DNA from: Romanomermis culicivorax
Lineage: Eukaryota > Nematoda > Enoplea > Mermithida > Mermithidae
DNA length: 64,000 nucleotides
Assembly (NCBI GenBank): GCA_963922205.1
Contig: CAWUHX010000228.1
Span: 62,001-126,000, forward strand
Reading direction: 5' to 3'
Each line of letters starts with the position of its first letter. The first letter of the stretch is position 1. Position numbers and translations under genes: made by a program. Below, in pieces: positions 21,001-60,523 of the stretch. The notes below the pieces were generated by a model. It was given only the letters and a program-made list of their open reading frames with translations, was not told the origin of the DNA and made no database searches.

Positions 21001-24000
21001 CGGAGATGAAAATTTTCACCTATGTATACATAAATGCATACTGCGAAGTCTGGGTCCGATTCGTATGTACTTGGAATTCCAAGTTCCAAGTCCCTAGTCT
21101 TGGAAAATCAGTGATTTTTCCCAATTTCGGTTCGTATGTTGAGAGTGGCCAAAGCAGCCACCTCAACTGCGAATTGTTGCAAAAACGAGAGCGTCTTTCC
21201 CGCTGCTCGGTTGGCTCAGTTGGTTAGAGCGTGCGGACGGTAGCCGCAAGGTCCTGGGTTCAAGTCCGGGCCTCAACACTGGTGGCCCCTAACAGGAGTT
21301 AGGGGCCACCAGTGTTGAGGCAACCTGTTCCCGCTACTCGGGGCTTCAGTAAAAGTTAGGCTCGGTCCGGGACTTGAACCCGGGACCGTGCGGCTACCGT
21401 CCACACGCTCTAACCAACTGAGCCGACCGAGCAGCGGGAAAGGAGCTCTCTTTCTGCAACAATTCGTAGTTGAGGTGGCTGCTTTGGCCACTCTCAACAC
21501 GTATGATTTTTTACTTTCCAAGTCTTCCAATTTCCAACTTCCAAGTCCCATGTCTCGGAAGATCGGCAACTTTCCAAGTTTCAGTTCGTATGCTCAAAAA
21601 AATTCCAAGTTCCGAGACTTGGAATTTCCAATGATTCTACCCAGTAAAACTGCATATTTCCATGTATCAGTTCGTATGCTCTGAAAATTTTCGACTGGGA
21701 TTCCAAGACTTGGAGAATTTACTTGGAAAATATGGAAACTTTCTCCCGGTCAAATTTCAGTTGGAAATTTGTTTCCAAGTGTGGCAGTTGCATCATTGAC
21801 AGTTTATGTCCTTGTTTTATTATCATGGATTACATGTTTGATGAAGCGCTTCATCAACAAACAAGGCAATTTTCATCTCCAATTAATTTTTACTTTACCC
21901 TCCAACCTTTAATGGAATGGTATTGATTAAGTCCAGTTAACATTCGTTTACTGGTTGATAGGATTTCCCCTTATTTCCACCTATGTGGCAAACGAAATGT
22001 TGATTTGTCTATCGATCAAAGAATCTTGATTGGACTGCAATGTTTGATGTCGAGTTCATTTTATTATGTCATTGGTGATGCTCATGTTAAACATTTAACA
22101 TTGCTCGGAACTTCTTTACAAAATAGTTTCCCAGAAAATCTCGAAACTTAATGTCCCTTCGTTCCTCACGCTTTCAAAAACTATTTTTTTGCGCATTTTG
22201 TCATTTGCTTTGGCAAATTTTTGACAAGGCATTTTGCCGAAAAAACAAGGTCCATTGATTTTGATACAATTAATAACAACAACTCATTCTAAGCCCGAAT
22301 AAACAGGAAATGAAATAACCTGTTACCTACACACTTTATAAATTTCAATATTTGGTGCACTAAAAAAAAGCCATATGCAAATTGGACTTGAAAATTCCAA
22401 GTCCTTGGAAAGAGCATACGAACCGGTACTTGGAAACTTGGAAAAAAAACTTGGGGACTTGTGAAATTTTAGTCATTTTCCAAGTCGGAAAAAGAAAATG
22501 ACTAGGAATTTTTAACCGAGGCTACGAACCGAAACTTGAAGACCAGGAATTCCAAGTCCTTAAGAACTTGAAACTTGGAACTTGAAATTCTAAGTACATA
22601 CGAATCGGCCCCTGGGGTGTCAAACGACTTTTGGGGCTGGAGGATCGTGAATCGACCAAACTCTAAGGCGGAGCTAATGAAGAGAAAAAATTTTATTTTT
22701 CAGCCAAAAAGTGGTTCCGAAATAGTAATTTTTGTCTTGAAAACCGTTAAAAAATATACTGGGTGAGTCAAAAAAAGCGACCGGTGCTGACCTCCATAAG
22801 TTTCGGACGGATGAAGCTTTTTTAATGCGGATGGCTGCATTAGAATCCCCTATTTGCCTTTGTTGTGAGTGTTTATAGTATGTTTTTCTTGAAATGCTTC
22901 TAAATAACGAAAGTGGAAAGCAAGTAGTATCTCAGATTTTCATGATTTGCTGATGAACAGTATATGATATAGGACTGGAAATTTGAGAGCATACTGACCT
23001 AACGTTTGATTTTTCTAATTTTTCGAGCAACAAATTTTACAGTAAGAGATCTATGTAAACGCTTTTGACGACAGTACTGATTTGTGTCACTTTTCTATTT
23101 GGAAGCATTTTGTAAAAAAATAGACTATAGTTTTATGCTCCTAGCCTTTTTGGTCTTCACATGAAAAGAAATTTCGTAAAAGTAGTCATTTTTTAGAAAG
23201 TAAAAGTTGTGAAATCAAACTAAAAGTTGTCCTATTGTGAAAAGGGTTTTATAAGGTTATTTACACACGAGAATACTTTAAAACACGCTCAGATTTTTAT
23301 TTGATACGTAACAAAGTCATCAGTTTCTTGCTTCAATATGAGCAAAATTTCGTCACGAGCTTTTGTTTTGAAATTGGAAAAAAGCAAAGTCAAAGCAAAA
23401 TCAATTCTGCCATTGACCAGTTCGGAAAACGATTAAAATTGGTGACGAAACAGAAAGGAGAACTCATTAAAACGGCTCTGTTGTAGTTTTCAGCTGTTAT
23501 ATGGTTGATTGAATCTATTTTGCTTTTATTCTGTTGTAAAATATGTTGATTTTTGTCAATTATTTTTCTTACTTACCAAAAAATCGATGTTTAGTATTTT
23601 TGATTCTAGTCAGTCAATATTTGGGAAATCTGACTGAAACTTTGCGTTTTACACGCCAGATGTTTCATCTATCGACGGCAGCAAACCGCATTGAATAAGC
23701 TCCATCGATTCGAAAGCTATAAAAATCAGCGCCGGTCACTTTTTCTTGATCGTTCTGTATTTGTGGTGCTAAGCGACTATAAAATTGACATTTTTGACCG
23801 TTTTTGCTTAAAAACGACCATTGTTCATCAAAAAATTAACATGTTTGTTCATTTCCTACTTGTATTTATGTAATAGATCGGATTCAGCATTTTATGTGAT
23901 GGATCAGGTGCAGCGTGGATACAGTTCACCTAAGTGGTTACTCTAGAACTTCTATTATCATAATAAGATTCGTATTATTTACAGAAATTAAGCTTTTCTT

Positions 24001-43033: not shown

Positions 43034-44490
43034 GAAGAAAGTGAGTGATTCCCAAGTGAGCGGATTCCCAATTGAGCGATTCCCATGTGCGCGATTCCTA
43101 ATTGAGCGAATTCCAAAGTGAGCGAATTCCCAAGTGGGCGATTCCCATGTGAGCGATTCCCAATTGAGCGAATTCCCAAGTGAGCGAATTCCTAAGTGAG
43201 CGATTCCCATATGGCCAATTCCCAACTGAGCGAATTCCCAAGTGAGCGAATTCGCAATCGGGCGATTCCAAATGAGCGATCGAGAATGTAGTAACACTTT
43301 CTTCATATTTTCCTTCTTAACCTTATATATTTCTTTCTATGTATTTTCTTCTTTGTCTTTTGTGTGTATTGTTAATGTTTTCTTTTATGCATGTTTTTGC
43401 GTTTTCATCTTTTGTCTCTGCTTTCTTTTACTTTCGTTTTTCTTTTCATCTACTTTTTTCTTTTTTGCTTATGAAACAACAAATTACGAGTTCTTATTTT
43501 TAATAAGCATAGTCTCCCGTATATTTCTTATGCTATTCGGCACGCTCTATTTTCTACATAATTTTATCCTTTGTGATTTTTCTTCGTTATTTTTTATCTT
43601 AGTTTTTTGCTTTCAATCACTCCTGATTTTTGCTTTTTTGTTCTTTTTTCACATTTTTTTCTTTCTTCCTTGCCGCTTTCTCTATGTTGCTCCTTCTTTC
43701 TTGTCACTGTTTTCATGTTTTCTCTCTTTTTTTAATGCTTTCCGACCTATTTTCACTTATTCTTAATGTCTTCATTTTTGTTTACGTTTCTTTTCTCTTG
43801 ATGTTTTTTTTTGTTTCAGCATTCTTTTGTTTATGTTTTTTATGACGATTTTCACACTTACAACGATGAAAGATTCAAGCATGTCGAACTGTACCAAAAT
43901 TATACAGGAGACTACGGTTGTTTAAAATGACAACTTGTAATGTGTTGTTTCATTAGCAAAAAGGAAAAAAGTAGATGACAAGAAAAACGAAAAGGAAAGA
44001 AAGCAGAGGCATAAAATGAAAACGTTAAAGCATACATAAACGAAAACATTAACAATACACCCAGTAAACGAAAAAAAGAAATACATGCAAAGAAAAATGT
44101 TAGGTAAAGAAGGAAAATATGAAGAAATTGTTATTACATTCTCGATCACTCTATTAGGATCGCCCAATTGGGAATTCGCTCAATTGGGAATCGCTCACAT
44201 GAGAATCGGTGAAATGGGAATTCGCTCAATTGGGAATCGCTCACATGAGAATCGGTCAAATGGGAATTCGCTCAACTGGAAATCGATCACATGGGAATAG
44301 CTCTATTGGGAATTCGCTTACTTGGGAATTCGCTCACTTGAGAATTTCTCACATGGGAATCGCTCAATTGGGAAATCGCTCATTTGGGAATTCGCTCACT
44401 TGGAATTTCGCTCACTTGGGAATCGCTCAGATTGGAATCGCTCACTTGAGAATCGCTCACTTGGGAATCGCTCACTTTGGAATAGACCAG
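43034..44490. repeat. 1.45 kb palindromic element with opposed minisatellite ends (GCGATTCCCAATTGA units)
   Basis: Left end 43034-43285 holds about 14 units of GAGCGATTCCCAA(G/T)TGA or GAGCGAATTCCCAAGTGA. Right end 44155-44485 holds about 18 complementary units (TTGGGAATTCGCTCACTTGG type). Inside, a T-rich arm (43290-43860) faces an A-rich arm (43930-44150) with matching sequence, e.g. the CGATCGAGAATGTA and TACATTCTCGATC blocks. The apparent open frames are translations of these repeats. Confidence 0.85.
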
Positions 44491-49762: not shown

Positions 49763-50664
49763 TGTAACGTACCTGCTAAAGCAGTACTGTAAAGATGTAG
49801 CATACTGTATGTGATAGACATTTATAAGATATTATTTTATTTTCGCATTTTATCATCTCAAGGGTGTCTGGGATTCACACCCAAACATTCCTATAAAATT
49901 ACATGAAATACTTTATTTTGATCCATTCACACCCCGGTAGCCCAATTAAGATGCCCCAATTAATTTGCACAAACGGCATCTGGTCCCCTAGAACCTACAC
50001 TAAACTACACATTCCACGGCTACCGTAATCCTCCGTAAAAATCGTAAACAACACCTGCACACAGTAAAATACGTAAAAGCCCCGCCAGACACTAGTCTCA
50101 AGTGTAACGGTAGCGACGGCCCCACAAAACATGTGTATTCAGAAAAACAGATACAGGAAGCATGCACAGAAGCAGAGAGGTGTGGCTAAGCTCACCGTAG
50201 GAAGCAAGCAATACACAAAAAGCATACCCTACTAGAAAAGCATTAAAGGGCCTGACTAAGTAAGCATGGAAAGTGAAGCAGGAAGCGAGGATTGGGGGAA
50301 GAAGATGGACAGAAGCACGACCTCCCGCGATGTCCAGGGAGTGGCCAAAAACGTCGTATAAAAAGAGAAGCAAAGCGTGATTTTATTGGTTATTGGATTA
50401 TTGAATTCATCGTTTTTTTTAAACCGCGCTCACCCCCATCTTTATATTTGCAAGCGGCAATTTTTACGAAAGCATTTAAACCGAGGCCGGTTCGTGTATT
50501 TTAAACCCAAACCGCGTTTTTGTATTGTTGTCGACGTCTCCACGCAGCCGTCGATTAGTATCGTATCGCCCCGTATGTGACTCACCTGTCTCCCCCACGC
50601 TGTTTCATTGCCGTAACGTCCATTGGTTAGGGTAAAATGCTTCACACAAAATCTGGACGTTACA
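49763..50664 (+). repeat. 5' long terminal repeat
   Basis: 902 bp, TGTAAC...GTTACA, the short inverted ends typical of LTRs. TATAAAAAG at 50357-50365 is a likely TATA box. The long antisense open frame (50373-50098) is also present in the other LTR because the repeats are similar; it is not evidence of a gene. Confidence 0.95.
50357..50365 (+). promoter_or_regulatory. TATA box candidate in the 5' LTR
   Basis: TATAAAAAG, conserved in the 3' LTR at 58648-58656. It probably sets the start of the genomic RNA about 25-30 bases downstream. Confidence 0.55.
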
Positions 50665-50669
50665 TATTT

Positions 50670-50685
50670 TGGTGACCATACCATA
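50670..50685 (+). other. Primer-binding-site candidate
   Basis: Five bases after the 5' LTR the sequence reads TGGTGACCATACC. TGG would pair with the CCA end of a host tRNA, as in other LTR elements; the tRNA is not identified. Confidence 0.55.
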
Positions 50686-50999
50686 CCATTAACCACTGGA
50701 ACTCCCTGCCCCCAAATAGGTGTACTCTTATCTGGGCATTTAGAAGCATTAGATAATACAGTAGTAATCATTTCCTACAGTGAGACAGTATTCGTAGAAA
50801 GCAAACTGGAAATCCCCTCCAATGGAACATTAAGCGATACATTTAAACGAATAGAGTGTGAAGCAAAAATTGAAGCATTTAAGCAGAAATCCCAGCGTAA
50901 ACCAAGAATGACCCACCAAATGCAAGATCATTTAGGAGAAATCGTTAGAGAGCAGATAACAATTTATTTTCTGAACATTTTCGTACTCTACGCACACAA

Positions 51000-52160
51000 T
51001 TGAATCAGAATACAGTAAACCCTACCCTCACTGACAATCTAAGAACAGCAAACATTCGTAATAACATGGCAAACAATTCTTATGCAAAACCTACAGTATT
51101 CACGGGTGGCGTGAATCAACATTTTGGTGAATGGAATAAAAAATTAGAACAATTCATGGCATTCCAAGGCATGAAAAATACAGACGTACAGTTAAAGTTG
51201 GCATGTTTAGAGATTAATTTAGGAGGAGCCGCGTTAGCAAAATTCAAAAGTCTAGCCAATTCCGAAAACCCTCCCCACACATACGAACAGTATAAAATAG
51301 CATTACATGCCTTTTTCTCAAACAATCGAGATAATGAGCTACACCAACAATTTTTACGCGAGAGAAAACAAAAGCGATCAGAAACAGTAACTGAATTCTT
51401 GTTTGATCTAGAACACCTCCCAACCCTTGCCTACCCTAACTTTAACACAGACGCACGAGAAATGATCATAAAACCCCTCTTTGTAGAAGGCATGCAAAAC
51501 GAAATCAGGGAAGCAATTAAGTATAGACGGTTCGCAACTCTAAAAGAAATGTCAGATGAAGCAGCTTACATTGAACAGCAAATCCTTAGAAATGAGTTAA
51601 AATCTAACGCCCTTCCCTTTATACCCCCAAAACCAGAACCCATCTTTTTCCTAACCAAAAACACAGACCAACAGGATCTTTTGCATCAGTTAGAACAACA
51701 AGTAAAAGATTTACAGTTGCAGATCAAACAAAAACCCCAACCCCCACAACAGAGTAGCTACAACAATTTCAGTAACAACACTTTCAGCAGGAATAATGCT
51801 TACAGGAACAATACCACCCCTAGGCAACCCACATGCTTCCAGTGTGGACAAATTGGACACGTAGCTCGTAATTGTAAATCAGTAGGCACCCAAAAATCAT
51901 GTGAAGTCTGTTTTCGTAATAATCACAGTATGCGTGATTGTAAAAGCCGATGCATCCACTGTTCCCAAACAGGACATAGATCTGATAACTGCCTTTCCAA
52001 ACCCTACTCAAATTTTCAATGTTTTATATGCAAGCAGAGAGGTCATACAAGTAGGTACTGTCCAAATCAACAGAGTCGTAATATTCAAAATTTCATTGAG
52101 TACAGGCAACCCCAACCCCTCATGGACATTGATGATTATGCCCACTACCCACTGCCGTAG
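51000..52160 (+). CDS. gag: gag-like polyprotein with four CCHC zinc knuckles
   Basis: A 386-codon open frame; the first ATG is at 51066, and the frame opens at 51000. Residues about 40-200 resemble a retrotransposon capsid (F-x-G-G-V-N-Q-H-F-G-E-W start, a Y-E-Q-Y-K-I-A-L-H-A-F-F motif, then a helix-rich region). This is followed by a Gln/Asn-rich linker. Four knuckles of the form C-x2-C-x4-H-x4-C begin at residues 279, 301, about 319 and about 341; most Gypsy gags have one to three. The protein binds genomic RNA and forms the particle. It appears intact. A separate frame at 50623-51003 overlaps its start and could be a frameshifted N-terminal extension. Confidence 0.9.
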   Translation: MNQNTVNPTLTDNLRTANIRNNMANNSYAKPTVFTGGVNQHFGEWNKKLEQFMAFQGMKNTDVQLKLACLEINLGGAALAKFKSLANSENPPHTYEQYKIALHAFFSNNRDNELHQQFLRERKQKRSETVTEFLFDLEHLPTLAYPNFNTDAREMIIKPLFVEGMQNEIREAIKYRRFATLKEMSDEAAYIEQQILRNELKSNALPFIPPKPEPIFFLTKNTDQQDLLHQLEQQVKDLQLQIKQKPQPPQQSSYNNFSNNTFSRNNAYRNNTTPRQPTCFQCGQIGHVARNCKSVGTQKSCEVCFRNNHSMRDCKSRCIHCSQTGHRSDNCLSKPYSNFQCFICKQRGHTSRYCPNQQSRNIQNFIEYRQPQPLMDIDDYAHYPLP

Positions 52161-52580
52161 TGACAAATACGTCCTCGACCTGGACGTACCCGATTGGTGC
52201 GCCATGTCACCATCCCCCATGCCCAAAGCCGCCAAAACCGAAAAATCGCCGCCCACCATACCCGCAGACTACAAGATCCCCTGAAAACAAGACACCAAGT
52301 CGCCCACCGCCCCGGAAACACCCTCCAAACCTGGCCGCAACTTATTGTCCCTTTTACATGGCCTCACCCCCGAACCCTACCAATTCCGCCCCCGCCAAAC
52401 ACTGCTACCGACCCCCACAAGTAAGCAAATCCAAACCCCATCCCATGACTCAACTTCTAAAATTTTACAGACCCTTCAGATTGCAAACCGGCCACCCCCT
52501 CAGCCCAAAAACGAAACACACCAAAAGCCGCCACGCCAAACCGGCAAGAACGAAAGTATACACTGCCCTGCCGGCTCCAC
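52161..52580 (+). other. Proline/Lys-rich coding-like linker between gag and env-like region
   Basis: Open in more than one frame and very rich in Pro, Lys, Thr and His codons with few Gs. It may be the N-terminal leader of the env-like protein or a gag-env connecting segment. No motif was recognised. Confidence 0.4.
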
Positions 52581-53337
52581 TAAAACACTATATTGGCCGT
52601 TGTATTGTATATTTTTATGCATAATAATCCCCACATGGTGTAGTGCCCAATTTCAGATGTGTGGAACTTCATTGAGCGGTCATTCAATCAGCATACCAAA
52701 ACTTGTATCATGCATGCCCCCTTCTACAGTAGACAAACCAGTACAGACATTCGGAAAAATCTATATCCCCTCCACTAAACCTCACATTACAGATGCCTAC
52801 AAATGCAGTGTTCGCAAACGCAAAATTTGTACTAATACAGGATTTTTTGGCTCAAAAGGTATTGTCTTCGACCAAACGGAAATGCAAAATCTAACCCCGC
52901 ATGTTTGTAAGGCAATCGTTATAAACAAAGAACACAACGGTCAAAAATTATACGAAACTCAACCAGGATTTTGGTCAACAAACAACTCCCTAAGCGTAGA
53001 ATACACATGGTGTTGTACAGACCACTGTACTTCGGTCACTAACGTCATCATAGAAATAGGACAAATAGCATCTTGGAATGGAAAATCTATGACAGGTACA
53101 TTAGGTGACCTAGGGTCATGCAAACCAACATCAGGCCATTGTGTAACAACTGATGGGTCCAATATCTGGAATGAAACAGTATTCGAAAACCAATGCCCTT
53201 TTGAATACAAAAATACACATCCCATAAAACTGACGCAAACCCACATGATAAGAAGAGCTACAAGGTGCATTCTCCGTCAAAAACACACTCTTTTCGAACC
53301 CCAACTGCTCAGAGATCCAAGACAGTGTCCTAACTGA
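52345..53337 (+). CDS. Envelope-like glycoprotein, ectodomain portion (interrupted)
   Basis: A 330-codon frame without an ATG at its start. Residues about 82-98 are strongly hydrophobic and end in W-C-S-A, like a signal peptide. The following 230 residues are Cys-rich (at least 14 Cys), with T-S-V-T-N-V, N-x-S/T sites and a C-T-N-T-G-F-F-G-S-K block, as expected for a folded secreted ectodomain. I believe it is a viral-type fusion glycoprotein; resemblance to mononegavirus-like (chuvirus or rhabdovirus) class III proteins is an impression only. The frame breaks at 53337, and coding-like sequence goes on in other frames to the anchor at about 54230-54298. Its position before pol is abnormal. 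Confidence 0.7.
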   Translation: MSLLHGLTPEPYQFRPRQTLLPTPTSKQIQTPSHDSTSKILQTLQIANRPPPQPKNETHQKPPRQTGKNESIHCPAGSTKTLYWPLYCIFLCIIIPTWCSAQFQMCGTSLSGHSISIPKLVSCMPPSTVDKPVQTFGKIYIPSTKPHITDAYKCSVRKRKICTNTGFFGSKGIVFDQTEMQNLTPHVCKAIVINKEHNGQKLYETQPGFWSTNNSLSVEYTWCCTDHCTSVTNVIIEIGQIASWNGKSMTGTLGDLGSCKPTSGHCVTTDGSNIWNETVFENQCPFEYKNTHPIKLTQTHMIRRATRCILRQKHTLFEPQLLRDPRQCPN

Positions 53338-53996
53338 ACAGGGCATTGTTGTACAGTTAGATAAAAGCATACTGACTTCATAATGCCTTTTTAACCCCAA
53401 AAACCAACGAAACTCATACCACACTATACGATTTTGATGATTTTGAACCCATTAACGCAAAACTAAACTATCTAGCAGATAAAATCCAGGAATTCGAAAT
53501 CCAAAATTTCAAAAACGTCTGGAGTGAATTATGCAGACAGGCACAGGTTCACCTTGATCTAGTATGGCAAAATTTGCACCTTGATGCAACCCTTGGGGCG
53601 CATGCATTCCTACAGCCAACTGACATAATAGCAGAACTCTCAGGAGAAGCCCTCACAGTCTGATCCTGTAAGCAAGTAAATGCATCTGAAGTCTTTTACA
53701 ATCATAAAATCAACCAAACATGCTACAAACATTTACCCATTCTCGTAGGAAGCGAACTCATGTTTTCAAATCCAGGAGGCAACGATTTAACCCCTTTCTC
53801 ACAAACCGTCGACTGCAATCACATGCATGTAGCCCTTTACAAACAGAATAATACATGAGTCAGTGAAACAGGATCCCCCCATGTCACAAATCTAACCTTA
53901 GAAATCGTCTGGAACCAAAATTTCTCCCTTTTCCATTTTAACACACCTGCACTTTTTCATGATCAACTTGCAACAATTTGGACGAACTTACTCTTT
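53338..53996 (+). pseudogene. Decayed continuation of the env-like region
   Basis: Coding-like composition continues in shifting frames (e.g. 53440-53640) but with frameshifts and at least one in-frame stop near 53661. It links the Cys-rich ectodomain to the anchor segment in the next frame. It is described only; not reconstructed. Confidence 0.55.
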
Positions 53997-55625
53997 TTGA
54001 AGCAATACATTTACAAAACCCACACACTTGAAAACATTGTTAAAAAACTCGTCAATTACACCGCCCAAATGTCTCTTAATTCAGATACAGTTTACAACAT
54101 GATCTCAGGCAGTGGCCAAGCAATGGGAAATACCCTCTCTGGCGCTGGTCAAGGCATAGAACATGTAATAACCGGCACCACCCAAAGCCTCACAGATGGA
54201 TTAAGTAATTTACTCAAGGGACCCTTGCATATCATCATAAACCTTTCTGTTATTACTGTAGTCATTGCAGGCGTCTTTTATTCTTTTGTCATTCTTCAAA
54301 GATATTTCCCTTCTCCAAAGCATCATGCCATGAATGAACATGCATACGAAGTACCATCACACAACAGACATTTACATGAGACCATTCCCCCATCATTCGG
54401 TCATGCTCTCTTAGAATTAGCTAATCGTCGTGGGGCACAAACGCAGCAGAAATACGTCCTTGTCCATATTGATACCCCCAGAACTCCTGCATTCGAACGC
54501 ATTAATCAAATTCACCAATCTGGATCAAACAAATCACCCCAGAATGTAGCTGAGAAACATACCCCTCACATTCCAATCACACTTAACGGCAAGCTAATTA
54601 CAAAAAGCATGATTGACACTGGAGCAGTCTACCCACTCATTGATTCGCGAATCGCTCAAATTCTACAGTTAGACATGAAACCCCCGCTAGTCCAAGCAAA
54701 AGCAGCAAATAACCTCCCGATTCACTTTGTAGGAACCACTTTTGTCGCAGTAACAGCCCAAACTATACAGGAAACAATAATGGTCCATGTGCAAAAAGAT
54801 TGCACAGCAGATGTCCTTCTAGGCAAAAACTTTCTCAGTCGATTTTCAGAGTACACTATCAACAATCAGATGTCCCAGGTCAAATTTGGCAATGTTATAC
54901 TACCTTGTGATGGCCTGGAATATAGTCCCCTTTCGAGCCATGGTGGAACTTATTTAGATGAGAAATTAGAATTACCACCCCGTACAGTCACCGAGTTCAC
55001 TGTCCCCTTGCCCGAATCGTATCTACAAGTTAAACAGCTGGAGTTTACTCCGAAACCCAAACAGAATCCCAAAGTTCATTTCGCAGCTTGTGTCTCTGAG
55101 AACCAAAACAGTCGCATACGTATATCGGTCCTAAACACACAAGAAACAGCCCAAACTGTTTACCCTGGAACATGCATCGGTACAGTCTCCTGTTACATCC
55201 CAAAACAAAATGCTCCTGCTAACGTAACCTTCTCGACGCAAAACCAGCCAAACCGTCTTGATGCATTCACATGGTTAAAAGAAAATTTTAATTTAACCTC
55301 CAGTGACCTCACAGAAACTGAAAAAACTCAACTTCTACGCGCCCTATCCAAGTACCCTACGTTATATGCTAAATCTAAAATGGACGTAGGAAGAACCACC
55401 CTTGTTTCACATACAATTGACACAAATGGCTCCCAACCCATATGCAGACACCTTTTTCGTACCTACCCAAAAGAAAAGCCAATTATACAAGCAGAAGTTG
55501 AGCAACGCGCAGCAGCAGGTGTCATAAGCCCGAGCAATTCTCCATGGTGTACCAACACAGTTTTAGTCCCCAAAAAAAAGGAGGCCATCGCTTATGTATT
55601 GATTTTAGAGGCCTCAATAAAGTAA
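53997..55625 (+). CDS. pol: Env anchor joined to aspartic protease and N-terminal RT (gag-env-pol frame)
   Basis: A 542-codon frame. Residues 30-75 are Gly/Ser/Gln-rich and amphipathic; residues about 78-100 form one transmembrane helix followed by basic and His-rich residues. Then an aspartic protease: catalytic D-T-G-A at 207-210 and the later A-D-V-L-L-G-K-N-F block. From about residue 420 comes the RT N-terminus, including the G-V-I-S-P-S-N-S-P-W segment. A shift of frame at the run of A at about 55571-55579 separates it from the rest of RT. Having an env-like anchor directly in frame with the protease suggests expression as one polyprotein (inference). Confidence 0.8.
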   Translation: MKQYIYKTHTLENIVKKLVNYTAQMSLNSDTVYNMISGSGQAMGNTLSGAGQGIEHVITGTTQSLTDGLSNLLKGPLHIIINLSVITVVIAGVFYSFVILQRYFPSPKHHAMNEHAYEVPSHNRHLHETIPPSFGHALLELANRRGAQTQQKYVLVHIDTPRTPAFERINQIHQSGSNKSPQNVAEKHTPHIPITLNGKLITKSMIDTGAVYPLIDSRIAQILQLDMKPPLVQAKAANNLPIHFVGTTFVAVTAQTIQETIMVHVQKDCTADVLLGKNFLSRFSEYTINNQMSQVKFGNVILPCDGLEYSPLSSHGGTYLDEKLELPPRTVTEFTVPLPESYLQVKQLEFTPKPKQNPKVHFAACVSENQNSRIRISVLNTQETAQTVYPGTCIGTVSCYIPKQNAPANVTFSTQNQPNRLDAFTWLKENFNLTSSDLTETEKTQLLRALSKYPTLYAKSKMDVGRTTLVSHTIDTNGSQPICRHLFRTYPKEKPIIQAEVEQRAAAGVISPSNSPWCTNTVLVPKKKEAIAYVLILEASIK

Positions 55626-56628
55626 CCAAAAAAATACCTACCCCTTGCCCCACATAGACAAAATTCTAGACACCCTGCGTGGAATGAAATATTTTACATC
55701 CCTCGATCAATCCAATGCATATTATTCCATTCCCATAGCACAAGCAGACAGAGAAAAAACTGCCTTTAATTGCTCAGCCGGACTATATCAGTTCAACTAT
55801 CTCCCCTTCAGCCTCACCAATGCTCCAGCCACATTCCAAAGGTTAATGGATGTTATTCTTTCTGGATTGCAATGGAACACATGCCTTGTCTACCTTGATG
55901 ATGTTTTAGTCTTCGCAGACTCCCATGCTCAAATGCTGGAACGTTTAGACACTATTCTTGCCTGGTTCTCCCAAGCAGGCCTTAAACTAAATATACAAAA
56001 ATGCAAATTCTGCCAGCCCCAAGTCCAATACTTAGGCCACATCATTTCTCAACAAGGCATTTCACCAGACCCCAATAAGGTACAGTCCAATTATGACATA
56101 CCCACGCCCAAAAGTTCAAAAGAAATTAAGTCCTTCCTTGGTCTACCCTCTTATTATCGTAGATTCATCCCGAATTGCTCCCAAATTTCCAGCCCCCTCA
56201 CAGCCCTACTCAAAAAGAATTCTGAATTTTCCTGGGGGCCCGAACAGCAAAACGCATTCACTAAGCTAAAAGAATTGCTCATTCATGCCCCAATACTGCA
56301 GCATCCTGATTTCACCACACCATTTATTCTGCAAACTGACGCCTCAAAACTCAGCATCCGCGCCATTCTCAGCCAATTAGACAGTAAAGGTCAGGATCGC
56401 CCCATTGCTTTTGGGAGCCGCACATTAAAACCCGCAGAACGCAACTACCCAATAACTGAGTTGGAAACCCTTGCAGTAGTTGAGTTTGTCAAGTATTTTC
56501 GCCCCTATCTTTTCCAGCAACATGTTATTGTACACACTGACCATACCCCAGTTCAGGCTGTCTTGCAGAAAGAAAACCTCTGCCCTTGCATTGCCCGTTG
56601 GGGATTAGCCCTTTCCGGTATTAGCTAG
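55580..56628 (+). CDS. pol: Reverse transcriptase and RNase H (frameshifted from upstream part)
   Basis: The recorded open frame starts with an ATG-less codon at 55645; the RT reading is already visible in this frame from about 55580. It contains the first catalytic Asp in T-S-L-D-Q-S-N-A-Y-Y, the F-x(2)-L-P-F-S-L-T-N-A-P-A-T-F block, YLDD at residues 83-86, the L-G-H-I-I-S and I-K-S-F-L-G-L-P-S-Y-Y-R-R-F-I blocks, then RNase H with L-Q-T-D-A-S, E-L-E-T-L-A-V-V and H-T-D-H. The frame ends at TAG 56626-56628; coding-like sequence (R-N-A-D-A-I-S) continues in another frame. Catalytic residues of RT are intact. Confidence 0.92.
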
Positions 56629-56879
56629 ACATTCGACTTAAGAAAGGCACTGCTAACCGCAACGCAGATGCTATTTCTGGATTTCCCTCAGAGACAGCGA
56701 AGCAATCCTTTGACATTGAGCAACTCAAAACCCGCCCCAAAATATCTACCATCAATTCTGTTCTTGAAGCTGAAGCAACTGAAAAAGAAGAGCTACAGAA
56801 AAATTTTGCTGAACTCCAACGCACAGATGCAACTGTCAAAAATGTTTTAGCAAAAATCGCCACAAAACATCCCCTTACT

Positions 56880-57233
56880 ATGATAAAATTCGCGGTGCAT
56901 CAAAACATCCTCTTCCGTATAGTTGACAAACAAGCAAAACTTGACATCCCCAAGTCCCAAGTACAGCATCTCATTGCCTCTCACCATGACAGCAAATTCA
57001 CAGGCCATTTTGCTGCCAGGAAAACTTTACACTTGCTCAGGCAAAAATATTTTTGGCCCCAAATGAGCCGTGATATCAAACCTTACTGCAAAACTTGCCA
57101 CCCATTCCAGACACAGAAAGCCCTCCGACACAGAATACATGCGAATCTCGTACCAATTCAGCCGACTGGCCCATTTGATAGAGTCGGTGTTTATTGCATG
57201 GGGCCATTACCCCTCACTGAAGACAGCAACTGA
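56880..57233 (+). CDS. int: Integrase, HHCC zinc domain and start of catalytic core (stop at 57231)
   Basis: H-H and C-x2-C residues of the N-terminal zinc domain are present (G-H-F-A-A-R-K-T, Y-F-W-P, C-K-T-C). The core begins D-R-V-G-V-Y-C-M-G-P-L. The position that is normally the first catalytic Asp (D-x-x-G-P) is Tyr at 57192-57194. TGA at 57231-57233 interrupts the frame, which then continues in the same phase. Confidence 0.88.
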   Translation: MIKFAVHQNILFRIVDKQAKLDIPKSQVQHLIASHHDSKFTGHFAARKTLHLLRQKYFWPQMSRDIKPYCKTCHPFQTQKALRHRIHANLVPIQPTGPFDRVGVYCMGPLPLTEDSN

Positions 57234-58022
57234 TTCATTGTCGTTTTCATCAATTATTTCACCAAATATGTGGAGGCATTCCCGACCCCTGACATTACTG
57301 CAGCCACTATTGCCAAGTTATTCATAACAAAAATTGTTTGCCCTCATGGGTCCCCAAAAATCATCCATTGTGATCGTGGCTCCGATTTTGTATCCAATCT
57401 CTTTTTACGAATCACTAGCTTATGCAATACTCAGAAAATTCATACCACCCCATACCATCCCATTGCCAATGCAGAAGTTGAGCATTGCAACCAAACTCTA
57501 GCCACCCGTATCCGCATGTACATCAATTCAAATCACACTGATTCGGATACTTATCTGCCCTATGCCGTTTTTTCGATCAACATTCATAAGAATGATAGCA
57601 CCTCGTATCCCCCATTTGAATTAATCCATAGAAGGCAAGCTAATCTGCCATCAGACGCAGCCTTAAATTTTTTCCCCACGTCCTACATGGTTGATTTAGA
57701 CGATTACACCCTTCGTGTAAAATCGCATTTTACAGAAGCACTCTCAACCGTGCAGAAAAGCTTACGAAAAGCCCAAGATCACTACACCCATCAGTATAAC
57801 AAGCATGCTCAAAACATACATTACAAGTCAGGCGATCTTATTCTTTACAAAAATCATTCGTGTAAACAAGGGCTGATTCCCAAATTCCTCCCTCGCCAAA
57901 ATGGGCCCTATACAGTTACAAATTTCATGTACCCCAATGTTACACTCAAACACCCCACTAAGAGTATCACATTTACCGTACATGTAAATGAGACAACCCC
58001 ATTCTACCCTCGAAAGCCTTGA
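57234..58022 (+). CDS. int: Integrase, catalytic core and C-terminal domain (after in-frame stop)
   Basis: Same reading frame as 56880-57233. Contains H-C-D-R-G-S-D-F with the second catalytic Asp, the V-E-H-C-N-Q-T-L block with the catalytic Glu, and a C-terminal G-P-Y-T-V-T-N-F segment like the GPY/F module. It ends with TGA at 58020, 31 bases before the 3' LTR, so there is no room for an env gene after pol. Confidence 0.88.
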   Translation, partial: FIVVFINYFTKYVEAFPTPDITAATIAKLFITKIVCPHGSPKIIHCDRGSDFVSNLFLRITSLCNTQKIHTTPYHPIANAEVEHCNQTLATRIRMYINSNHTDSDTYLPYAVFSINIHKNDSTSYPPFELIHRRQANLPSDAALNFFPTSYMVDLDDYTLRVKSHFTEALSTVQKSLRKAQDHYTHQYNKHAQNIHYKSGDLILYKNHSCKQGLIPKFLPRQNGPYTVTNFMYPNVTLKHPTKSITFTVHVNETTPFYPRKP

Positions 58023-58040
58023 AGGAGGACGTTCAACTCC

Positions 58041-58053
58041 AGAAGGAGGGAAA
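58041..58053 (+). other. Polypurine tract
   Basis: AGAAGGAGGGAAA immediately before the 3' LTR, the expected primer for plus-strand synthesis. Confidence 0.85.
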
Positions 58054-58955
58054 TGTAACATGCCTGCTAAAGCAGTACTGTAAAGATGTAGCATACTGTA
58101 TGTGATAGACATTTATTAGATATTATTTTATTTTCGCATTTTATCGTCTCAAGGGTGTCTGGGATTCACACCCAAACATTCCTATAAAATTACGTGAAGT
58201 ACTTTATTTTGATCCGTTCACAGCCAGGTAGCCCAATTAAGATGCCCCAATTAATTTGCACAAACGGCATCTGGTCCCCTACAACCTACACTAAACTACA
58301 CATTCCACGGCTACCGTAATCCTCCGTAAAAATCGTAAACAACACCTGTACACAGTAAAATGTGTAAAAGCCCCGCCAGACAGTAGTCTCAAGTGTAACG
58401 GTAGCGAGGGCCCCACAAAACATGTGTATTCAGAGAAACAGATACAGGAAGCATGCACAGAAGCACAGAGGTGTGGCTAAGCCCACCGTAGGAAGCAAGC
58501 AATACACCAAAAGCATACCGTACTAGAAAAGCATTAAAGGGCGTGACTAAGTAAGCATGGAAAGTGAAGCAGGAAGCGACGATTGGCGGAAGAAGATTGA
58601 CAGAAGCACAACCTCCCGTGACGTCCAGGGAGTGGCCAAAAACGTCGTATAAAAAGAGAAGCAAAGCGTGATTTTATTAGTTATTGGATTATTGAATTCG
58701 TCGTTTTTTTAAACCGCGCTCACCCCCATTTTTATATTTGCTAGCGGCCATTTTTACGAAAGCATTTAAACCGAGGCCTGTTCATGTATTTTAAACCCAA
58801 ACCGCGTTTTCGTATTGTTGTCGACGTCTCCACCCAGCCGTCGTTTAGTATGGTATCGCCCCGTATTGTGACTCACCCGTCTCCCCTGCGCCGTTCCATT
58901 GCCATAACGTCCATTGGTTAAAGTAAAGTGCTTCACACAAAATCTGGTCGTTACA
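58054..58955 (+). repeat. 3' long terminal repeat
   Basis: 902 bp, same length as the 5' LTR and differing by scattered substitutions. TATAAAAAG at 58648-58656. The antisense open frame 58664-58389 mirrors that in the 5' LTR. Confidence 0.95.
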
Positions 58956-59073: not shown

Positions 59074-60523
59074 GTATTCGGGGAATCGAGACGTTTGGGG
59101 AATGGGGATCAATGTATTGTCTTTGGAGAAGGGAAGTTTATTCATTATCGGGGGAATAAGGACCTTCGGGGAGTAGGGACTTTCGGAGGATCAGGATATT
59201 TGGGGAAAAGGGACGTTCGGGGAATAAGGACACAATCGTGCAAACCTGAATGAATTTTCGTGCAGTAATTCCCGGACTTAATTAGGATTAGCTGTGTGGA
59301 TTCCTAATCCATTGATCTAAAAAAATTGAAAATGCACTGTCTAATGAGCTTAGTTCGTTTAGTACTTGCTTTCACGTTTTTTGAGCTTAAAATGTTGACG
59401 TTTTGAAATAGTTTTTCACGCCGATCCCTCTACCAAGTTTTGTTCAAGATGTCTGTAAGTCTCGCGAGCTTTGTACCAGAGTTTCAACCCTTTGAATACA
59501 CAGCACTATTCTCACGCACAAGATTGGCTGGCCTGCAGTCGGATCACCCATCACTCAAGAAACCTGCACCCGTCCAGTCTAGTAATAACTGCAGCAACCT
59601 TGAGCCGTTGCTGATGTCAAACGTCGGTGTGTAAATATACGTTATTCTAACGCAATGCAAGAATAACAGAAGCTCAAGATCAGTTGAAACGCAATGGTAC
59701 GAATGAGAGCTGGTGCTCCACAGGCAGGAGTAGAATACCACAATTTAGCTAAACCGATATTATACTCTATTTTTCAATTACTGTGAAAACCGCCCATTAA
59801 TTGTCATATACCAACCACTATGTACCTATTTTTCATTCACCATTTTTGTCTATATTATTTTTGCATAAATTTCCTTGCTGTGTATGTTCTCGCCATAAAT
59901 GCAACTGGTAAAAGTTTTTTGGCGTATGTTTTTTCTAAGGAGTAAATAATAAAGTCCTTTTCGGTTGCGGGTTTCACCTGACGGACTCTCAGGAAATACT
60001 TGCCCTCTAAAGGCCCTGTCATACTTCCCGTACTGTGCGGCGCCGGTTGTTCTATCCATATTAAAAATCGGCACTGCACAGTACCACCTTTGTAGTATGA
60101 ATAGGTTTTTGTAATTGTTGTAACATATTGTTGCATACTGTGACATCTATACATGTAGTTGAATCATATTTTTCACTTGAATGGTGAATTCAGACACTTG
60201 TCAAATTATTTTACTAAATTGGTTACTTAATTTTCAATGAAGATTTACTAAGAAGTTGATCATTTAATTTGCAATGAAGACATTAACGTGTAAAAATTAT
60301 GAATATTCAAAGTAGGTGTAAACATGTTCCTACAGCAAGTGTACTCGAACCTTTTGATTGTTTCTTTATTCCCCTAACGTCCCTTTTCCGCAAATATCCT
60401 GATTGTCCGAAAGTCCATATTCCCCATAGGTCCCAATTCCCTGAACAATAAATAATCTTCCTGTTTCCCTGGAAACTGCATTAATCCCTATTCCCTGAAC
60501 GTCCTGGTTTCCCGAATACCAGG
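59074..60523. repeat. Element with GTATTCGGGGAAT-type array ends
   Basis: Left end 59074-59232 is made of units such as GTATTCGGGGAATCGAGACGTT and GGGGAATAAGGAC; right end 60368-60523 is the complementary array (CCCTGAACGTCC, CCCGAATAC). The ends face each other. It overlaps the start of the GC MITE copy at 60011, so the region is rearranged rather than cleanly nested. Confidence 0.55.

What the first reader, a model, noticed from the sequence alone, without database searches (positions are those of the whole stretch)
49763..58955. LTR retrotransposon with the envelope-like gene between gag and pol
Seen: gag zinc knuckles end at 52160; then a Cys-rich ectodomain-like frame with a signal-like hydrophobic stretch (52345-53337), a decayed bridge, and a single membrane helix (about 54230-54298) directly in frame with the aspartic protease; integrase ends 31 bases before the 3' LTR. 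Known: in Gypsy/errantiviruses and retroviruses env follows pol. So this element either acquired a glycoprotein in a new place or belongs to a lineage with a gag-env-pol polyprotein. This would be a distinct architecture for an enveloped retroelement.
Basis: partly seen in the sequence, partly recalled or inferred. Interest (0 to 1): 0.88.

Follow-up and report, generated by a model that had tools for sequence, protein, structure and literature searches.

The report
Nematode retrovirus-like element, envelope in middle
A roundworm genome carries many copies of a retrovirus-like mobile element that encodes its membrane-fusion protein inside one long polyprotein, between the capsid and the enzymes, instead of at the end; this order had been noted before in a giant flatworm element, and here it is compact, repeated in several families and apparently maintained by selection.

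Summary
The element (49763-58955) is a decayed Ty3/Gypsy-type provirus with 902-bp LTRs, in a genome whose COX1 is 97% identical to that of the mermithid nematode Romanomermis culicivorax. The region between gag and protease is an envelope: env of an open copy matches Pfam PF24664 (Monjiviricetes fusion glycoprotein, E=1.7e-18), and a profile of seven homologues matches herpesvirus gB structures (E=6e-6), i.e. a class III-type fusogen. It is no one-off. In 30 env loci (one is the window's) gag lies upstream in 30 and protease downstream in 28; 8 of 30 carry one open frame through gag-env-protease, and in 7 of those 8 the frame runs on to the end of integrase (about 2,407 aa). Three further families, with env 38-56% identical, share the order. 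Among seven open copies env has dN/dS 0.09, like gag (0.11) and protease (0.08); the gag-env linker has 0.40. LTR divergence is 0-0.5% in seven copies, 5.5% in the window copy. Database relatives show Gag-Env and Env-Pol fusions. In-frame gag-env-pol is in print for planarian Burro elements, so this is a new variant. Best model: a membrane-threaded Gag-(signal)-Env-(TM)-Pol polyprotein; expression, topology and infectivity were not tested.

The parts
49763..50664 (+). 5' LTR, TGTAAC...GTTACA
50665..50690 (+). probable primer-binding site region (TATTT then TGGTGACC); the same TATTTTGGTGACC follows the 5' LTR in the seven copies where the LTR end was found; no tRNA was matched to it
50845..52160 (+). 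gag: capsid domain (Pfam just under or below cut-offs) and CCHC knuckles (four by pattern in open copies); broken here by frame changes. 50845 is the window equivalent of the first ATG of the long frame in 7 of 8 open copies
52161..52585 (+). proline-rich linker between gag and env; in open copies in frame with both, dN/dS 0.40
52588..52647 (+). internal signal-peptide-like stretch directly before the mature ectodomain (placed from P0001)
52648..54221 (+). env ectodomain, PF24664 type; split here by a frame change and two stops
54222..54297 (+). transmembrane helix after an LLKGP-type motif
54573..54842 (+). aspartic protease
   Evidence: PF13975, E 1.6e-7
55639..56046 (+). reverse transcriptase (part in this frame)
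   Evidence: PF00078, E 1.7e-31
56233..56532 (+). RNase H domain
   Evidence: PF17919, PF17917
56946..58022 (+). integrase: H2C2 zinc domain, catalytic core (PF00665 a little under its cut-off), GPY-type C-terminal motif (by eye)
58041..58053 (+). polypurine tract (by eye)
58054..58955 (+). 3' LTR

Best explanation
An old, decayed copy of an envelope-bearing Ty3/Gypsy-type (Metaviridae) element of a Romanomermis nematode. Open relatives encode one Gag-Env-Protease-RT-RNaseH-Integrase reading frame of about 2,407 aa. Proposed working (inferred): translation starts at gag; an internal signal sequence threads the class III-type ectodomain into the ER lumen; the single TM helix stops transfer, so that Pol returns to the cytosol; signal peptidase and the viral protease cut the chain; Gag, Env and Pol are delivered to the same membrane in about equal amounts, and Env serves fusion between cells or worms. 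Shown here: domain order, single frame, homology of Env, its recurrence in several families, recent insertions, purifying selection on env. Inferred: translation of the whole frame, membrane topology, cleavage, budding, entry.
For: Env identity: PF24664 E=1.7e-18, 66 bits against a cut-off of 27; a profile of 7 homologues hits 5cxf (gB, E 5.7e-6), 8y48 (gB, 2e-5), 9cu4 (named ORF8, a gammaherpesvirus gB by recall, 7e-5) and 9jli (gB, 0.003), the four best of 17 hits. Order: gag upstream in 30 of 30 and protease downstream in 28 of 30 env loci. Single frame: 8 of 30 loci open through gag-env-PR, 1,506-1,522 codons; in 7 of those 8 the pol piece is open in the same frame for 960 codons to a common stop (frame checked by coordinates); 13 of 68 scored PF24664 places lie in open frames of 2,085-2,578 aa. 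With the database Gag-Env protein P0002 as query, 37 of 39 scored env places have a gag match upstream with the same open-frame length. Recurrence: four families, env 56/42/38%, RT 74/65/55% and gag 37/32/25% identical to the main one. Function: dN/dS env 0.09 (95% 0.06-0.14), gag 0.11, TM+tail+PR 0.08, linker 0.39 (0.22-0.71). Recency: LTR K2P 0-0.0053 in 7 copies; exact 4-bp target duplications in 5 of 7. Topology elements (signal-like stretch, one TM, 523-537 aa between them where both passed the threshold) occur in all four families and in P0002. Elsewhere: P0002 is a Gag-Env fusion; P0005 is Env-PR-RT-RH-IN in one protein, starting inside env.
Against: No transcript, protein or particle was examined. 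A splice-acceptor-like TTTTACAG lies about 120 nt before the signal stretch in all seven open copies examined, so a spliced Env mRNA cannot be excluded. In two families a Met lies close before or at the signal stretch (L079, and 36 aa before in L080), so separate initiation is possible there. In 7 of 8 main-family copies the signal stretch fell below the hydropathy threshold that I used (it passed only in L018); it is called signal-like by eye and by position. Private changes of broken copies, meant as a neutral control, did not differ from those of open copies (pN/pS 0.26 and 0.26 in env), so that control gives no support. The AlphaFold model was poor (pLDDT 41), so no fold comparison was made. 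3 of 12 pol-selected copies lack env at the expected place: one keeps the env tail beside protease, one joins gag to the protease end, one is unresolved.
Confidence: 0.72

Rival explanations
1. Env is made from a spliced mRNA (leader or short gag exon joined just before the signal stretch), giving Env-Pol or Env, as Cer1 makes CERV by splicing; the single frame only reflects compactness.
For: Acceptor-like motif about 120 nt before the signal stretch in 7 of 7 open copies. Cer1 has no stop between gag and pol and still splices (PMC10309623, passages).
Against: No GTRAGT donor in the first 2,400 nt of the seven copies, though weaker GT sites exist. In the main family no in-frame Met for about 128 codons before the signal stretch. 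Copies about 97% alike cannot show that such motifs are selected. No stop lies between env and pol, so a spliced product would still carry Pol.
Confidence: 0.2
2. The envelope is a one-off insertion into this copy or a chance frame.
For: None found; the window copy alone would allow it.
Against: Gag-env in 30 of 30 and gag-env-protease in 28 of 30 loci, four diverged families, purifying selection, Gag-Env and Env-Pol proteins in databases.
Confidence: 0.01
3. Env works only within the worm (soma-to-germline or germ-cell spread), as errantiviruses do in fly ovaries, and not between individuals.
For: Env is retained in young copies under constraint; precedent in Drosophila (PMC10541861, start of abstract in a search listing only).
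Against: Nothing here distinguishes spread within a worm from spread between worms.
Confidence: 0.5
4. These elements and planarian Burro descend from one ancient gag-env-pol lineage.
For: Same in-frame order; Burro env hits mononegavirus fusion glycoproteins (PMC6431247, passages), and PF24664 is named for the class Monjiviricetes, which holds those viruses (recalled); P0002 and P0005 show parts of the order in other records.
Against: No Burro sequence was available for comparison. Burro also matched gypsy Env in HHpred (same passages), which is recalled as a class I protein.
Confidence: 0.35

Closest known systems
Burro (GYPSM1) giant Gypsy elements of planarians (PMC6431247, passages seen)
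   Same: Gypsy-like; Gag with CCHC knuckles, env in frame between gag and pol in one polyprotein; env with hits to mononegavirus fusion glycoproteins
   Different: Burro exceeds 30 kb, with a polyprotein of 4,873-5,140 aa carrying BCL2-like and other extra domains; here about 9.2 kb and about 2,407 aa, and no such domain in the Pfam scan of the window pieces
Atlas virus, hookworm belpaovirus (PMC9094657, passages seen)
   Same: Nematode element of about 9.2 kb; all genes in one uninterrupted polyprotein; env from a negative-strand RNA virus
   Different: Order Gag-Pol-Env; class II phlebovirus-like GC; Belpaoviridae
Anakin, mosquito BEL/Pao element with chuvirus glycoprotein (PMC7642597, passages seen)
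   Same: LTR element with a glycoprotein of the chuvirus kind
   Different: BEL/Pao; that paper puts the env of three other BEL elements downstream of the polyprotein (the order in Anakin itself was not seen in the passages)
Errantivirus (Gypsy, ZAM) and metazoan envelope-carrying gypsy elements
   Same: Metaviridae with env; type III glycoproteins are mentioned for mosquito gypsy elements (PMC13172572, passages seen)
   Different: Env downstream of integrase in the ICTV text (PMC7879559, passages seen)
Herpesvirus gB / Monjiviricetes fusion glycoproteins
   Same: Profile match over the central region
   Different: Stand-alone proteins of DNA or negative-strand RNA viruses (recalled)

Membership tests
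Metaviridae (Ty3/Gypsy) | LTRs, PBS, PPT and order PR-RT-RH-IN | tested here: met
   PBS and PPT by eye, no tRNA matched
Metaviridae (Ty3/Gypsy) | env, where present, downstream of integrase (ICTV text) | tested here: not met
   env lies between gag and PR; integrase ends 31 bases before the LTR
Metaviridae (Ty3/Gypsy) | RT tree position among named Gypsy clades | not tested
   no reference RT set at hand; small trees of own families and P0005 only
Errantivirus | env as its own gene after pol | tested here: not met
Troyka | CG...CG termini and 3-bp target duplications (PMC12440569) | tested here: not met
   TG...CA termini, exact 4-bp duplications in 5 of 7 copies
Class III fusion proteins (PF24664 / gB type) | significant profile match | tested here: met
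   the label class III for gB is recalled
Class III fusion proteins (PF24664 / gB type) | three-dimensional class III fold | tested here: inconclusive
   model pLDDT 41
Chuviridae-derived glycoprotein | nests among chuvirus glycoproteins in a tree | not testable with these tools
   no chuvirus rows retrieved; the viral-contig scan confirmed none
Burro-type gag-env-pol elements | env in frame between gag and pol | tested here: met
Burro-type gag-env-pol elements | sequence relationship to Burro | not tested
Belpaoviridae (Atlas, Anakin) | BEL/Pao-type RT | tested here: inconclusive
   the Pfam RT and RNase H hits do not by themselves separate the families; a GPY motif and YLDD (by eye) point to Gypsy

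The most novel reading that the evidence does not exclude
An ancient animal-wide lineage of enveloped retroelements that builds its particle from one membrane-threaded polyprotein (Gag inside, Env through the membrane, Pol inside), closer in expression logic to a flavivirus than to a retrovirus, with Env fixed at one per Gag-Pol; Burro, these mermithid families, P0002 and P0005 would be its branches.
Probability: 0.33. Interest if true: 0.8.

Novelty: new variant of a known kind. Interest (0 to 1): 0.56.

Why it matters
Simple retroviruses make Env from a separate spliced mRNA (as the Cer1 paper states), since Env must enter the secretory pathway. A young, multi-copy element family with Env inside the polyprotein and under constraint suggests that this separation is not obligatory. 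It makes a testable case of how one chain is sorted to both sides of a membrane. It extends a one-line remark on a giant planarian element to a compact element in another phylum, departs from the ICTV wording on where Metaviridae env lies, and offers a possible source for class III-type glycoprotein 'fossils' found beside Gypsy fragments.

Tried and rejected
One-off insertion: rejected. Programmed gag stop in the L079 family: rejected, since the stop is private to one copy and that codon is no stop in the other 5 of 6. Class II (phlebovirus) or class I env: no such Pfam hit in the three main-family env pieces or in one piece from each of the three other families. The weak 8t5c Glycoprotein G1 hit of the broken window piece (E 0.38) did not recur with the open protein. 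Viral-contig scan for relatives: 98 pattern matches, none confirmed. NCBIfam: nothing. AlphaFold on P0003 with 7 rows: pLDDT 41, not used. Neutral control from broken copies: uninformative; 8 of 20 loci of equal length (4,567 nt) were dropped as misaligned, leaving 7 open and 5 broken. The 18S search failed and was not repeated; COX1 gave the host. Small trees of env (6 rows) and RT (5 rows) agree on main+L080 and resolve little else. The promoter scan of the LTR is made for bacteria and says nothing. Chary and Hayashi 2025 (eLife 108449), cited in PMC13172572, is not held; it may already describe such elements.
Full report
What is there. The window holds a provirus at 49763-58955 with 902-base LTRs, TGTAAC/GTTACA ends and the order gag, env, protease, RT, RNase H, integrase, 3' LTR. 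This copy is old: its LTRs differ by K2P 0.055, and gag, env and pol are broken by frame changes and stops. The genome has 359 Mb in 595 contigs. Its COX1 is 97% identical to that of Romanomermis culicivorax; the next hit, R. nielseni, is at 84%. R. culicivorax is a mermithid nematode (that it parasitises mosquitoes is recalled).

The envelope. The first 350-aa env frame of the window copy has no Pfam hit, and a later 95-aa piece hits PF24664 weakly (E 0.0074). Env from an open copy (P0001) matches PF24664 with E=1.7e-18, well over its cut-off, and herpesvirus gB below cut-off. Single pieces of three other families give E of 6e-20 to 1e-19. A profile of seven homologues finds gB structures first; a search with P0001 alone finds nothing in the PDB. 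So the protein is of the class III kind by sequence. Whether it came from a chuvirus, a mononegavirus or another source was not resolved.

One frame. Of 1,097 candidate places for env DNA, 40 were scored and 30 fetched with 1,500 bases on each side; one of the 30 is the window's own. Gag lies upstream in 30 of 30 and protease downstream in 28 of 30; in the other two the match stops after the TM and tail. In 8 of 30 a single frame runs through gag-env-PR. In 7 of those 8 the pol piece is open for 960 codons in the same frame, to a common stop (frame checked by coordinates); in the eighth pol is broken. The first ATG of the frame is at the same place in 7 of 8, giving about 2,407 aa by my arithmetic. 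Other scans agree: 13 of 68 scored PF24664 places (2,320 candidates) lie in open frames of at least 2,000 aa. With the database Gag-Env protein P0002, 37 of 39 scored env places have gag upstream with the same open-frame length. With P0005 as query, 29 of 29 scored places have both env and pol, 27 of them as one continuous match. These queries select for env, so they give no unbiased count.

Copies chosen by pol. Of 41 pol places I took 12 that had no env place listed beside them; 9 of the 12 have env at the expected place. Of the other three, one keeps the env C-terminus next to protease, one joins gag to the end of the protease region, and one shows no similarity. I found no env-less gag-pol ancestor, but I did not search for one exhaustively: the RT search (122 scored of 8,207 candidates) was not checked for env place by place.

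Several families. L080, L078 and L079 have env 56, 42 and 38% identical to the main family, RT 74, 65 and 55%, and gag 37, 32 and 25%; protease identities (38, 39 and 38%) show no order. All three have gag upstream and protease and RT downstream in the same frame. One stop in the gag of the L078 copy and one between gag and env of the L079 copy interrupt that frame; the L079 stop is private to that copy, and the L078 stop was not tested in other copies. The equal order for gag, env and RT suggests that env has travelled with the element for long. The trees are too small for more.

Selection and age. Among seven open copies, dN/dS (Nei-Gojobori, 21 pairs) is 0.11 for gag, 0.09 for env, 0.08 for TM+tail and for PR, 0.05 for pol and 0.40 for the linker; the bootstrap ranges of env (0.06-0.14) and linker (0.22-0.71) do not overlap. 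Choosing open copies removes stops but not amino-acid changes. A control from broken copies gave no contrast. LTR pairs of seven open copies differ by K2P 0-0.0053 over the aligned part of 622-790 positions; the eighth had no 5' LTR in the fetched piece. Exact 4-base target duplications were found in 5 of 7.

How it most likely works. The anatomy is Gag - linker - signal-like stretch - ectodomain (523-537 aa, 16-17 Cys where both ends passed the threshold) - one TM - protease and the rest. In 7 of 8 main-family copies the signal stretch lies below the hydropathy threshold used. If the whole frame is translated, Gag and Pol stay in the cytosol while Env crosses the membrane, which is topologically consistent. 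Such logic is known from flaviviruses (recalled). The steps after the open frame are inference. The main rival is a spliced Env mRNA: an acceptor-like site exists, but in the main family no Met lies in the 128 codons before the signal stretch.

Comparison with what is known. ICTV places Metaviridae env downstream of integrase (PMC7879559, passages). Burro of planarians has env in frame between gag and pol, described as the first case (PMC6431247, passages). Atlas virus is a single Gag-Pol-Env polyprotein with class II GC (PMC9094657, passages). Anakin is BEL/Pao with a chuvirus glycoprotein (PMC7642597, passages). Dezordi 2023 found Jingchuvirales glycoproteins near Gypsy fragments but 'no clear evidence' of capture by Gypsy (PMC10084718, passages and abstract). 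Drosophila MDG1 elements use a short fusogen-like sORF2 upstream of gag instead of an envelope (PMC11952523, passages). A 2026 paper mentions type III glycoproteins in mosquito gypsy elements and cites Chary and Hayashi 2025 on envelope-carrying gypsy across animals (PMC13172572, passages), which I could not read. In the listings of ten paper searches I saw no description of these Romanomermis elements.

Verdict. Real, well supported, not a one-off; a new variant of a known kind. The order is not new; its compact, recurrent, recently inserted and constrained form in a nematode is new as far as these searches show.

Noticed in passing
G000:C180:404-17640; C17:1929792-1955137; C81:875211-900969: Env or RT matches recur at equal spacing (8,365 bases, three copies on C180; about 12,180 bases, three copies on C17), as expected of tandem proviruses sharing LTRs. 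C81 also has three env copies close together.
   Followed up: no
G000 contigs C82, C6, C124 and others: A family about 58% identical to L079 in RT lies in open frames of 3,018 aa, roughly 450-550 codons longer than the long frames of the window family (2,480-2,583); extra domain or longer gag unknown.
   Followed up: partly
window 43039-43280 and 44159-44485: Two arrays of a 15-16-base unit (AAGTGAGCGATTCCC) in opposite orientation about 900 bases apart, like a foldback element.
   Followed up: no
window 21205-21278 (+) and 21359-21432 (-): Two tRNA matches (29.1 and 44.4 bits) facing each other with their 3' ends, 80 bases apart.
   Followed up: no
window 59093-59237 and 60356-60500: Inverted repeat of 145 bases, 79% complementary, beyond the 3' LTR.
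   Followed up: no
L039 (G000:C117:992573-993922): Full-length COX1, open under table 5, in a nuclear-sized contig: a recent nuclear copy of mitochondrial DNA or an assembly join.
   Followed up: partly
P0004: An env relative is filed under a 'Gammaproteobacteria' metagenome genome on a 1,383-base contig; probably eukaryotic or viral DNA binned wrongly.
   Followed up: no
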